NCBI RefSeq assembly: GCF_000455345.1
Contig: NZ_HG315691.1
Coordinates: 318,696 to 382,695 of the forward strand
Length of the DNA: 64,000 nt
Direction: 5' to 3'
From: Halopiger goleimassiliensis
GTDB taxonomy: Archaea; Halobacteriota; Halobacteria; Halobacteriales; Natrialbaceae
Shown: piece after piece, positions 29,872-32,533 of the stretch
Layout: every line of letters begins with the position of its first letter
Position numbering within the stretch: position 1 is the stretch's first letter
Translations under genes and position numbers: made by a program
Notes under the pieces: model-generated
What the model saw: the letters and a program-made list of their open reading frames with translations, nothing else
What the model was told of the DNA's origin: nothing
Databases searched by the model: none

Positions 29872-30768
29872 TCAGCCGTCGACGTCACCTGTCCCCGGAT
29901 TCGTCCGGTCAGTCGCTCCTGTTCCATCACCAGGGATATCCGCGTCCTCCATCAGGCGGACGTACCGCTCTGTGTACTCGAGGCCGTTCTTGCGCTGTCG
30001 TTTCCGTTCGATCGCGAGACGGTTCCCCGAGAGTTCGAGCAGGGCGTCGATGGTTCTCGAGACGAGTTTTTTCGCGTAGTCGTCGCTGATTCCCTGTTCT
30101 TGGCGACGAATCCAGTGTTTCATGTCGCTGGCCGTGACGTACTCACGGACGCCTGCAGTGCCGTTCTTCCAGGGATTGTCGCCGACGCTCGGATCGGTTC
30201 GTGCCGTCCAGAGTTTGGCGGCGAGACGCGTAGGCAGCGAGGACGTGGTTGCATGGAGCATGTCGTCGTCCAGCCTCGCGAGTTGCTGGATCGGCAGGAG
30301 ATCGCCGTGGGCGAGCGCGACCTCGCCGCCGCGCTCGAGCGGGTCGTCGCTCTCGGGGAGCCGGTAGTACTGTCTGCCGTCGTCTTTCCTGATGCGCTCG
30401 AGGCGGCCATCGGGAACGTCGATCTCGCGTTCGTCGACGTGCTCCGCGCGGAGGTGTGCGCCTTTCTCGAGTTCGCGGGCCTGGAGTTCGCCGACGCGAT
30501 CTTTGTTCGCGTTGAGTTTCTTCTCGTGGGCGTCCAATCGGGCCTCGATCGGTGTCTGTGCGTGCTCGAGCTCGTCGATCCGTGCCTCGAGGCGGTCGTT
30601 TTCCGCACGTTCTCGCTCGAGTTCGGCTTCCAGCTCCTCGAGCCGGTCGTCTTTCCGTTCGAGGGCGGCTTCGAGTCGGTCGATCCGGTCGCGAAGCGAC
30701 TCGAGTTCGGTGGTGAGCGTCTGGATGATCGATGCGTTCGGTCCGGATGGCTCGGTATTCGTACTCAT
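29872..30768 (-). CDS. Coiled-coil plus winged-helix protein of the TnpB-like operon
   Basis: The 298-residue product is read from the ATG at 30768 (MSTNTEPSGPNASIIQ). Residues ~20-115 are a nearly continuous heptad coiled coil (LRDRIDRLEAALERKDDRLE and beyond). A middle region (about 120-210) has QYYRLPESDDPLERGG, and a C-terminal winged-helix-like part (about 215-280) contains YVTASDMKHWIRR, AKKLVSRTIDALLEL and LEYTERYVRLMED. The layout suggests a dimeric DNA-binding protein. It is the last gene of a minus-strand series 32039 to 29872, 170 bp after the TnpB-like gene. It could be a partition or repressor protein of a mobile element; function not shown. Confidence 0.82.
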   Translation of the reverse strand: MSTNTEPSGPNASIIQTLTTELESLRDRIDRLEAALERKDDRLEELEAELERERAENDRLEARIDELEHAQTPIEARLDAHEKKLNANKDRVGELQARELEKGAHLRAEHVDEREIDVPDGRLERIRKDDGRQYYRLPESDDPLERGGEVALAHGDLLPIQQLARLDDDMLHATTSSLPTRLAAKLWTARTDPSVGDNPWKNGTAGVREYVTASDMKHWIRRQEQGISDDYAKKLVSRTIDALLELSGNRLAIERKRQRKNGLEYTERYVRLMEDADIPGDGTGATDRTNPGTGDVDG

Positions 30769-30938
30769 GGCTTCGGGTCCGTGGATGGATGGTTGAGAAG
30801 GCGATACAGCTGCCGCGCAGCGGTCACGCGGGCGGCGTCGGCACACGGAGGGTGTGACCGGTCGAATGCGTGGACGCTACAGCGGCGACTCGAGGCGGTC
30901 CGTTCTCGACGCGACCGTCGCCTCGGGGTTGGCGGGGG

Positions 30939-31649
30939 TTAGGCATCGTCCGGTTGCGGCTGTGGTGGGCCGCCGTCGGCGACGAGTGCTGGACGCTCGC
31001 CTGGCGTGACCGGGGGCGGGGAACGGTATGTACACCGCTGGCCGGGGTGGTACCGCTGGGCGAGGACCTTCGCGGCATTGTAATCCGCGTGGACCCGGTC
31101 GACGCGACAGTCGGGGTTGGGACAGCGGAGCGTCTTGTCCTGCGGTCGGTCACCGATGACGCCGCAGCGGTGACACTCCTGCGAGGAGTGCGTCTCGGGC
31201 ACCGTCGCGACCTCGACGGCGTACTCGGCGGCGACCGCTCGAAGCCGCAGGTGGGCCATCGCGAGGAGCCACGCCGTCCCGCGATGGGCGTCGGGATCGG
31301 TGAGCCAGGCCCACAGGTCCGGCTCGTAGTGGTTGTCCTCGGTGACGAGCACGGGACGGTCGTACGCGCTCGCGTACTCGCAGAGCGCTCGTGCTGCGCC
31401 GTCGAGAGTCTCGAGCAACTCGGCGCGACGTTGTCTCACGTACGCGACGACCGTGTCGCGATCCGAGTCGCTGGCGAGCAGTACGGCGACTCGTTCGCGG
31501 AGGTCGTCCAGGTGAGCGCAAATCTCGTCGCCGGAGATCCTGTAGGCCCCCGTCCAGTCCGGCATCGTGGCTGGACAGGCGGTGTAGAGGTTGTACTCGC
31601 CGAGGTCGACGCCGATCGGGGTGCGGTCGGGGTTATCCATCGCGATCAC
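30939..31649 (-). CDS. Minimal TnpB-like RuvC nuclease-domain protein, 236 residues
   Basis: The product is a TnpB/IS605-OrfB relative that consists almost only of the RuvC nuclease. Using the GTG at 31649 (an ATG at 31640 is equally possible), RuvC-I is IGVDLG (Asp15), RuvC-II is LVTEDN (Glu105), the zinc ribbon uses CHRC (159, 162) and CPNPDC (176, 181), and RuvC-III is HADYNAAKVLA (Asp189). The D-E-D catalytic set is therefore intact. Canonical TnpB has ~200 more N-terminal residues for guide-RNA and target recognition; these are absent, yet the start overlaps the preceding small gene as in an intact operon, so this is not obviously a decayed fragment. No transposon ends or TnpA partner were seen. 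It may be a domesticated nuclease. Confidence 0.85.
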   Translation of the reverse strand: MIAMDNPDRTPIGVDLGEYNLYTACPATMPDWTGAYRISGDEICAHLDDLRERVAVLLASDSDRDTVVAYVRQRRAELLETLDGAARALCEYASAYDRPVLVTEDNHYEPDLWAWLTDPDAHRGTAWLLAMAHLRLRAVAAEYAVEVATVPETHSSQECHRCGVIGDRPQDKTLRCPNPDCRVDRVHADYNAAKVLAQRYHPGQRCTYRSPPPVTPGERPALVADGGPPQPQPDDA

Positions 31650-31782
31650 CTGGCGAGCTTTCGTCGGCAGTGGAGGGGGTGTCGGGTTCAGCGGCGTTCT
31701 GGGACTCGAGCGTTCGGTAGCGGTTGGAGGGGCGGTTGGTCGTGGTTTGGTGTCGGTGGTGTGTGTAGCCGCCGCGAGTCAT
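31633..31782 (-). CDS. Small basic/His-rich protein, 49 residues, second gene of TnpB-like operon
   Basis: Found by hand: ATG at 31782, stop TAA at 31633-31635. The start overlaps the stop of the preceding gene as ATGA, and its stop overlaps the start of the TnpB-like gene. GGAGGT lies 7 nt before the ATG. The peptide begins MTRGGYTHHRHQTTTNRPSN and ends in an acidic Ser/Asp tail. No domain recognised; the double overlap and the ribosome binding site are the reasons to believe it. Confidence 0.6.
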   Translation of the reverse strand: MTRGGYTHHRHQTTTNRPSNRYRTLESQNAAEPDTPSTADESSPGDRDG

Positions 31783-32039
31783 CGGCGGTTACCTCCTGTG
31801 GCTTCGAAGAGGATTGCATCGTCGCCTGTGACGAGGAGTTCGTCGTACTGCGTAGTGGTGTGGCGTGTCGGTGTCGCTGCGGGAAACTGGACGGATGCAG
31901 GGGGTGTACTATTGTTCGTCCGTGTCGTGGTGTGATGCGGGGCCGTTTTCTGGGTGGTGTTTTCGTGGCCTGCCGATTGGCCGGCTGTACCATCGTCTAT
32001 TGGGCAATATTCATTGCCCCTCGAGCGTTCGTTTCGCAT
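31779..32039 (-). CDS. Small Thr-rich protein, 86 residues, first gene of TnpB-like operon
   Basis: The ATG at 32039 begins MRNERSRGNEYCPIDDG; a GTG at 32090 would add 17 residues. The middle is Thr/Pro/His-rich and probably disordered, and the end (QYDELLVTGDDAILFEATGG) is more ordered. The stop overlaps the next start (ATGA). A GTTAAGGG stretch ~47 nt upstream may be promoter. No homolog recognised. Confidence 0.5.
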   Translation of the reverse strand: MRNERSRGNEYCPIDDGTAGQSAGHENTTQKTAPHHTTTRTNNSTPPASVQFPAATPTRHTTTQYDELLVTGDDAILFEATGGNRR

Positions 32040-32236
32040 GGTCGGAAACCTCGTGCAGAGGGTGACCCGACCCCGGCGTGCCCTTAACACGTCGGCCTTC
32101 TAGCCGAAAGGGGCGGGTCGTTCACCGTGTTTCGTCTCTACCCACAAGTAATTTACTGACGATCGTTAATCGCTAGGTTTCGGGTATTGCATGAATAATT
32201 AATATCCGTATTTAGACCCTTTACATCGGTGAATCT

Positions 32237-32533
32237 ATGAACATAGCCGTTACAGGAATGGACGACATGCGGGAATCTGCCGACTGGATGGTGCCATCTG
32301 ACGATCGAATCCTCGAGTTGATCCGTGAGCACGGCAACCTGACGCCAAAGGCAATCGAGGCTTTCGGCGGACCAGTTCGGCAGCACGCAAGCCGACGATG
32401 CGCAGAGCTTGCAAAGTACGGCCTTCTCGAACGAGTCTACCGAGGGCTGTACGGAATCACCGACAAGGGGGAGGCATATCTCGACGAAGAGCTCGACGCG
32501 AGTGAGCTTGAGCCAATCCAGGATTCTAAGTAA
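32237..32533 (+). CDS. PhiH1-repressor-like winged-helix regulator
   Basis: The 98-residue product contains the halophile winged-helix pattern MRESADWMVPSDDRILELI, GNLTPKAIEAFGG, HASRRCAELAKYGLLERV and YRGLYGITDKGEAYLDEEL, typical of the family named for the repressor of halophage PhiH. An ATG at 32237 sits 23-28 nt after the TATA-like TATTTA (32209-32214), fitting a leaderless start; family members often begin at the internal MRESADW (32267). It is divergent from the TnpB-like operon across a 200-bp promoter region and probably controls it. Confidence 0.85.
   Translation: MNIAVTGMDDMRESADWMVPSDDRILELIREHGNLTPKAIEAFGGPVRQHASRRCAELAKYGLLERVYRGLYGITDKGEAYLDEELDASELEPIQDSK

What the first reader, a model, noticed from the sequence alone, without database searches (positions are those of the whole stretch)
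29872..32039. Four-gene operon with a minimal TnpB-like RuvC protein
A 236-residue protein has the RuvC D-E-D residues (Asp15, Glu105, Asp189) and the zinc ribbon of TnpB but lacks the ~200-residue N-terminal guide/target-recognition part. Its start overlaps a 49-residue gene that overlaps an 86-residue gene, and a coiled-coil/winged-helix gene follows. The tight overlaps argue for a functioning unit rather than a decayed transposon. Missing domains could be supplied in trans by the partners. A phage-repressor-like regulator is divergent.
Basis: partly seen in the sequence, partly recalled or inferred. Interest (0 to 1): 0.7.

Follow-up and report, generated by a model that had tools for sequence, protein, structure and literature searches.

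The report
RNA-switch cassette carrying trimmed TnpB nuclease
A salt-loving archaeon carries a cut-down but apparently intact relative of CRISPR-type nucleases, and the more surprising part is what controls it: a previously uncatalogued folded RNA leader next to a matched repressor gene, a control module that haloarchaea use in many copies in front of very different genes.

Summary
The 236-aa protein is a TnpB-type RuvC plus zinc-ribbon core; Asp15, Glu104 (not 105), Asp189 and four Cys are invariant. About 33 close orthologs in Natrialbaceae form one clade under purifying selection (median dN/dS 0.29). It is not a decayed transposon. The "missing domains supplied by partners" idea is not supported. 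The coiled-coil/winged-helix protein (ccWH) is a widespread multicopy family usually found without RuvC, and a gas-vesicle-linked RuvC branch lacks it. The 49-aa ORF is a degenerate zinc-finger start. The 5' end of the 86-aa ORF is part of a structured leader (window 32002-32119, minus strand). This leader is the main finding. It is a three-way junction plus two mutually exclusive helices, the second ending at the start codon, then a hairpin just inside the ORF. The fold recurs with different sequences and compensatory changes, behind a TATA-like box, beside a divergent winged-helix gene. One model finds it in 102 of 125 Natrialbaceae genomes and 119 of 293 across the order, with no Rfam match, before RuvC, PadR-integrase or other cargo. 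Repressor and leader are exchanged as a matched pair. Best reading: a mobile-element control cassette gating a domesticated TnpB-derived nuclease. Switching mechanism and nuclease substrate are inferred.

The parts
32237..32533 (+). divergent winged-helix (PhiH1-repressor-like) regulator gene; its start lies ~200 nt from the operon's first ATG in nearly all homologous loci
   Evidence: phrog_2440 E 2.6e-35; spacing 184-210 nt in nearly all of the 36 loci; travels with the leader
32144..32158 (-). AT-rich TATA-like stretch ~30 nt upstream of S1 (weak here; a clear TTTAWW box in most relatives)
   Evidence: TATA-like box at -30 to -33 of S1 in about 44 of 48 B-type leaders
32002..32119 (-). structured leader: three-way junction (P1 enclosing P2 and P3), alternative S2:S3 hairpin ending at the ATG, then P5 hairpin inside the first ORF
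   Evidence: model R2 scores it 150 bits, E 1.9e-38 (it is one of the seed sequences)
32110..32119 (-). S1, 5' arm of P1 (GACCCGCCCC)
32092..32109 (-). P2 hairpin
32077..32091 (-). P3 hairpin (CGTG..CACG)
32064..32074 (-). S2 (GGGGTCGGGTC), pairs with S1 or with S3
   Evidence: three-way covariation in B-type
32040..32045 (-). S3 (CCGACC), directly upstream of the ATG at 32037-32039
   Evidence: S3 abuts the ATG (0-1 nt) in most of 58 leaders tested
32002..32019 (-). P5 hairpin GGGCAAT-GAAT-ATTGCCC inside the 86-aa ORF
   Evidence: different sequence, same hairpin in other groups
31779..32039 (-). 86-aa ORF: 5' part lies in the structured leader; C-terminal part conserved in a subset of loci (variable cargo)
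31633..31782 (-). 49-aa ORF, degenerate counterpart of the start of a zinc-finger cargo gene (L035, 251 aa)
30939..31649 (-). 236-aa RuvC + TNB zinc-ribbon protein, TnpB-derived, catalytic residues intact, no guide-binding lobe
29872..30768 (-). ccWH, 298-aa coiled coil + C-terminal winged-helix-like domain; widespread haloarchaeal family

Best explanation
The locus is one copy of a modular haloarchaeal mobile-element control cassette. SHOWN BY COMPARISON: a divergent winged-helix regulator sits next to a ~110-nt leader that begins just downstream of a TATA-like box. It folds into a three-way junction whose 3' strand (S2) can pair either with the 5' end (S1) or with the segment directly before the start codon (S3), and a further hairpin lies just inside the ORF. 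Regulator and leader are inherited and exchanged together as a matched specificity pair; what follows is exchangeable cargo. Here the cargo is a domesticated TnpB remnant, RuvC plus zinc ribbon only with intact catalytic residues, followed by ccWH. INFERRED: the regulator represses transcription; the leader switches translation of the first ORF between an open (S1:S2) and a closed (S2:S3) state in response to an unknown signal; translation is coupled through the overlapping ORFs; and the RuvC protein acts as a nuclease on DNA or RNA without a TnpB-style guide, its target being set by ccWH or by nucleic-acid structure. Rough odds: anatomy and modular cassette 0.9; mRNA leader rather than DNA element 0.75; switch acting on translation 0.5; RuvC an active, non-guided nuclease 0.4.
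For: One clade of RuvC (99/99), purifying selection, invariant D/E/D and four Cys. Fold of Cas12f/TnpB RuvC-TNB. Leader in 36 of 38 RuvC loci. Covariation: B-type, 16 RuvC loci: 96% paired, against at most 43% when slid; window type: 94% against at most 49%; 48-member set, most not in the seed: 94-95%, 42-47 double-change cells against 14-16 shuffled, 0/500. Three-way covariation S1/S2/S3: G-C-G in 31, C-G-C in 16 of 48. Junction region mean folding z -3.8 on the sense strand; RuvC coding control -0.2. TATA-like box at -30 to -33 of S1 in about 44 of 48. S3 abuts the ATG in most leaders. Matched exchange: wHTH-leader r 0.85 against RuvC-leader 0.42; window and L040 share 93% RuvC but only 60% wHTH and 51% leader; L050 and L062 the reverse (72, 91, 88%). 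Same leader before other cargo: ccWH operons without RuvC, PadR + integrase operons, 102 of 125 family genomes, 119 of 293 order genomes. No Rfam match.
Against: No transcript, probing or biochemical data. In B-type leaders S1 and S3 resemble each other with A.C mismatches to S2 (16 A.C against 2 G.U in P1), and the S2-S3 segment folds better in antisense, which a DNA-repeat reading would also explain. P5 overlaps codons, so part of its conservation could be coding. Per-leader tests of S1/S2/S3 are individually modest (32 of 58 at p <= 0.05), and the compact leaders of the MSVQPRTHE-cargo loci mostly fail it. The signal, the regulator's target and the nuclease substrate are unknown. One homolog (DC36 plasmid, 735-aa fusion, L038/L068) has no leader detected. 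E-values come from shortly calibrated models; many hits are related copies, so cell counts are not independent events.
Confidence: 0.6

Rival explanations
1. The structured element is functional as DNA, not RNA: S1, S2 and S3 are half-sites of an operator for the divergent wHTH repressor, possibly extruding hairpins, giving a phage-type immunity region.
For: wHTH and leader are inherited as a matched pair (r 0.85); S1 and S3 are near-identical direct repeats and S2 their near-inverse; S2-S3 folds better in antisense; located between divergent genes.
Against: P2, P3 and P5 are covarying hairpins with changing sequence; G-U outnumber A-C pairs in the window-type and RuvC B-type helices (24 v 6; 21 v 7); the TATA-like box places the start at S1 and S3 ends at the ATG.
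Confidence: 0.22
2. The RuvC protein works as a minimal RNA-guided nuclease, with the leader RNA as its guide or scaffold and ccWH or small ORFs replacing the missing lobe.
For: TnpB ancestry, intact active site and TNB; a structured RNA lies next to the gene in 36 of 38 loci.
Against: The same RNA precedes many operons with no RuvC; RuvC and leader type are only weakly correlated (0.42); no guide-like variable segment, and no leader match longer than 14 nt elsewhere in its own locus, no more than controls; about 10 residues before RuvC-I against 181-231; ccWH absent in nine or ten RuvC loci.
Confidence: 0.1
3. The cassette is a defence or plasmid-competition system: the repressor-leader pair senses an invader or sister plasmid and releases a nuclease effector.
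For: Rapid exchange of the control pair over conserved effectors, megaplasmid location, a nuclease as cargo and multiple copies per genome.
Against: Other cargo includes integrases and PadR, not obvious effectors; PADLOC gives only TNB/Cas12 domain and coiled-coil matches; a branch sits beside gas-vesicle genes.
Confidence: 0.2
4. Decayed transposon fragment with chance neighbours.
For: Some copies are broken (L070-L072).
Against: About 33 orthologs, dN/dS 0.29, invariant catalytic residues, conserved leader and neighbours.
Confidence: 0.02

Closest known systems
TnpB of IS200/IS605 and IS607 elements (OMEGA nucleases), Cas12f
   Same: RuvC-I/II/III residues, TNB zinc ribbon, fold
   Different: no WED/REC lobe, no 3' omegaRNA-like structure, no TnpA seen in the loci read; leader RNA is 5' and shared with unrelated genes
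TldR, phage-encoded TnpB-derived RNA-guided transcription factors (abstract of PMC13418256)
   Same: a TnpB exapted next to regulated genes, outside a transposon
   Different: TldR is nuclease-dead and guided (established knowledge); here the catalytic residues are all kept and the guide lobe is lost
Translational riboswitches and structured attenuation leaders
   Same: mutually exclusive helices, one ending at the start codon
   Different: no known ligand, no Rfam match; found in haloarchaea, where structured leaders are described as not typical (PMC4983044)
PhiH1-type repressor regions of haloviruses and lambdoid immunity regions
   Same: divergent repressor gene beside a control region, exchanged as a specificity unit
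   Different: here the control region is a folded leader, and the downstream genes are exchangeable cargo on plasmids and chromosomes

Membership tests
TnpB RNA-guided nuclease | RuvC D-E-D catalytic residues | tested here: met
   D15, E104, D189 invariant in 31 homologs
TnpB RNA-guided nuclease | C-terminal zinc ribbon (TNB) | tested here: met
   PF07282 E 1.5e-10; four Cys invariant
TnpB RNA-guided nuclease | N-terminal WED/REC guide and target lobe (~200 aa) | tested here: not met
   ~10 residues upstream of RuvC-I against 181-231 in haloarchaeal TnpBs
TnpB RNA-guided nuclease | omegaRNA overlapping the 3' end of the gene | tested here: not met
   no excess structure at the RuvC 3' end (z -0.22); spacing to ccWH 46-394 nt
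TnpB RNA-guided nuclease | RNA-guided DNA cleavage | not testable with these tools
   needs biochemistry
TldR | inactivated RuvC site | tested here: not met
   catalytic residues invariant
Type V CRISPR (Cas12f) | adjacent CRISPR array | not tested
   no array finder was run; none annotated in the plasmid loci read
cis-regulatory structured RNA | conserved secondary structure with compensatory changes | tested here: met
cis-regulatory structured RNA | alternative helices that include the region before the start codon | tested here: met
   S1:S2 against S2:S3, S3 abuts the ATG
cis-regulatory structured RNA | transcribed on this strand from just upstream of S1 | tested here: inconclusive
   TATA-like box at -30 to -33 in about 44 of 48 leaders; no RNA data; antisense folding comparable for part
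cis-regulatory structured RNA | ligand or effector that flips it | not testable with these tools
   unknown
any Rfam family | match above gathering score, or E <= 10 in a local scan | tested here: not met
PhiH1-type repressor | divergent small winged-helix gene of that family | tested here: met
   phrog_2440; the homologous gene in L098 is annotated PhiH1 repressor

The most novel reading that the evidence does not exclude
A new, widespread class of archaeal switch RNA, paired with its own winged-helix repressor and swapped as a specificity unit, forms a general control module for mobile-element cargo in haloarchaea. One cargo is a new type of enzyme: a TnpB-derived nuclease that has dropped RNA guidance altogether.
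Probability: 0.4. Interest if true: 0.9.

Novelty: new variant of a known kind. Interest (0 to 1): 0.76.

Why it matters
Haloarchaea mostly use leaderless mRNAs, and a transcriptome study of Haloferax volcanii concluded that control by structured leaders is not typical of them (PMC4983044). A conserved switch-like leader present in most Natrialbaceae genomes, up to 12 copies each, would contradict that for mobile genes and offers a ready experimental system. It also shows a TnpB exaptation opposite to TldR: the guide lobe is lost and the nuclease site kept, which makes testable what a lone RuvC-TNB core can do.

Tried and rejected
Rfam scans of the whole window and, permissively, of the locus: nothing. 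IMG/VR scan for the RuvC protein: no relative. Phage records: only ordinary ISH12 TnpB for RuvC, none for ccWH. RNA between RuvC and ccWH: rejected. Split-TnpB by partners: rejected on distribution. Guide-like matches of the leader elsewhere in its locus: none beyond controls. MAFFT of all leaders together misaligned the subtypes, so RNAalifold found little there; separate subtype alignments and covariance models were used instead. Model R1 (B-type) does not detect the window's A-type leader above noise, so two models were needed. Foldseek for ccWH: no significant match. Paper searches found no description of this RNA or of a lone RuvC-TNB haloarchaeal family.

Full report
WHAT WAS CHECKED. 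The four ORFs and the divergent regulator exist as described on the minus strand of a 0.88-Mb contig. The 236-aa protein carries the Cas12f1-like TNB domain (E 1.5e-10). Its AlphaFold2 model (core pLDDT mostly 80-98) matches the RuvC/TNB parts of Cas12f, TnpB and Fanzor (best E 2e-9). Asp15, Glu104, Asp189 and Cys159/162/176/181 are invariant in 31 homologs.

DISTRIBUTION. A search of 125 Natrialbaceae genomes gives about 33 close orthologs (55-90% identity) clearly apart from full-length TnpBs at 30-38%. At a stringent cut-off in 392 genomes of the order, only this family and one weak hit elsewhere (G406, 230-aa frame, 38%) appear. The clade has one origin (99/99), and median pairwise dN/dS is 0.29. 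TnpBs have 181-231 residues before RuvC-I, this protein about ten. A second lone RuvC-TNB family (L073-L075, and 210 aa on H. gibbonsii pHG4, L168) is a separate branch with its own 104-aa overlapping partner.

NEIGHBOURS. Around the RuvC genes the constants are the divergent wHTH and an upstream leader. ccWH follows in 26 loci but is missing in a branch of which 8 of 9 members lie beside gas-vesicle genes (GvpO, GvpA, GvpF/L and GvpG confirmed by Pfam in L058), and also in L069. Between leader and RuvC the content varies: a PadR regulator, a zinc-finger protein (L035), the 86-aa type, or nothing, with the leader ORF fused straight into RuvC (L036, L046, L047, L050, L059, L063). The window's 49-aa ORF resembles the start of the L035 zinc-finger protein with its zinc-knuckle cysteines replaced. 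ccWH itself occurs in 102 of 392 genomes, often several times, and on 46 plasmid records, usually after other cargo. Partners therefore do not stand in for a missing TnpB lobe.

THE LEADER. In 36 of 38 RuvC loci a region ending at a conserved CCATG, in nearly all cases 184-210 nt from the wHTH start, folds into P1 enclosing P2 and P3. The 3' strand of P1 (S2) can alternatively pair with the segment just before the ATG (S3), and a further hairpin, P5, lies just inside the ORF. Four sequence types, largely unalignable with each other, keep this plan. Within types, slid-register and shuffle controls support pairing (B-type 96% of cells paired against 32-43% slid; window type 94% against 33-49%). 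In a 48-member model-fitted set, 94-95% of cells pair, with 42-47 double changes against 14-16 after shuffling. S1, S2 and S3 covary three ways (G-C-G 31, C-G-C 16 of 48). The junction region folds far better than shuffles (mean z -3.8; a coding control -0.2). A TATA-like box at -30 to -33 of S1 in about 44 of 48 members predicts a transcript beginning at S1; that archaeal TATA boxes centre about 26 nt upstream of the start is established knowledge. The strand is thus inferred, not shown: S2:S3 and some P1 mismatches would also suit DNA repeats or the other strand.

BEYOND RuvC. The same leader is present in ccWH operons lacking RuvC. With model R1 it occurs in 102 of 125 Natrialbaceae genomes, up to 12 copies each, and in 119 of 293 genomes of the order, 45 of 87 genera. 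Model R2 (window type) hits 41 of 125. Most of the 20 strongest sites without RuvC or ccWH that were read have a divergent wHTH and a downstream PadR-type gene, small ORFs and a tyrosine integrase. The peptide encoded across P5 (MYDDxSRGLESPD-like) is fused to unrelated proteins (RuvC, PadR, others), consistent with constraint on the RNA. The window's own genome holds the window-type copy and three B-type copies. Rfam has no match.

MATCHED EXCHANGE. Pairwise identity of wHTH and leader correlates strongly (r 0.85), RuvC and leader weakly (0.42). The window and L040 have 93% identical RuvC but 60% wHTH and 51% leader; L050 and L062 show the reverse (72, 91 and 88%). The pair behaves like a repressor-operator specificity unit.

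INTERPRETATION. Best reading: a mobile-element control cassette (regulator plus switch-like leader) driving exchangeable cargo, here a domesticated TnpB-derived nuclease core plus ccWH. Anatomy and distribution are shown by comparison; RNA nature, switching, repression and nuclease role are inferred. A DNA-operator reading of S1-S3 is the main rival. Structured leaders are described as not typical of haloarchaea in a transcriptome study (PMC4983044), which is why the leader, rather than the RuvC gene, is the surprising part.

LIMITS. No expression or biochemical data. Covariance models were calibrated briefly, alignments fitted to a model lean towards it, and counts over related copies are not independent. 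The genomes searched are a sample. No CRISPR-array search was run.

Noticed in passing
L073-L075 (5642-6612, oriented) and L168:1639-2582: A second, unrelated-by-clade lone RuvC-TNB family (210-219 aa) whose start overlaps a conserved 104-aa ORF, present on Natrialbaceae chromosomes and Haloferax gibbonsii pHG4.
   Followed up: partly
L058, L059, L061, L063-L065, L070, L071: A RuvC branch with its leader and wHTH sits convergent to gvpO at a gas-vesicle gene cluster in eight genomes, beside a CHY zinc-finger gene in several.
   Followed up: partly
L038:7051-10202 (Natrinema sp. DC36, 58-kb plasmid): RuvC fused to ~500 extra residues of unknown function, preceded by a zinc-finger/HTH protein in a phage-like gene string; no leader detected.
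   Followed up: partly
L148-L167: Conserved chromosomal unit: HicAB-like genes, wHTH, structured leader, PadR, small coiled-coil ORFs, XerC/D-like tyrosine integrase; up to 12 leader copies per genome.
   Followed up: partly
L137 (G040:C32:24500-36000) and G021:C4:28902-64164: Several ccWH copies, some broken, clustered within 10-35 kb, suggesting repeated insertion or recombination at one site.
   Followed up: no
L103, L106, L108-L113, L115 (leaders upstream of MSVQPRTHE... ORF): A compact version of the leader (same three-way-junction plan, ~80 nt) before a 101-aa + 210-aa cargo pair that is nearly identical in many plasmids.
   Followed up: partly
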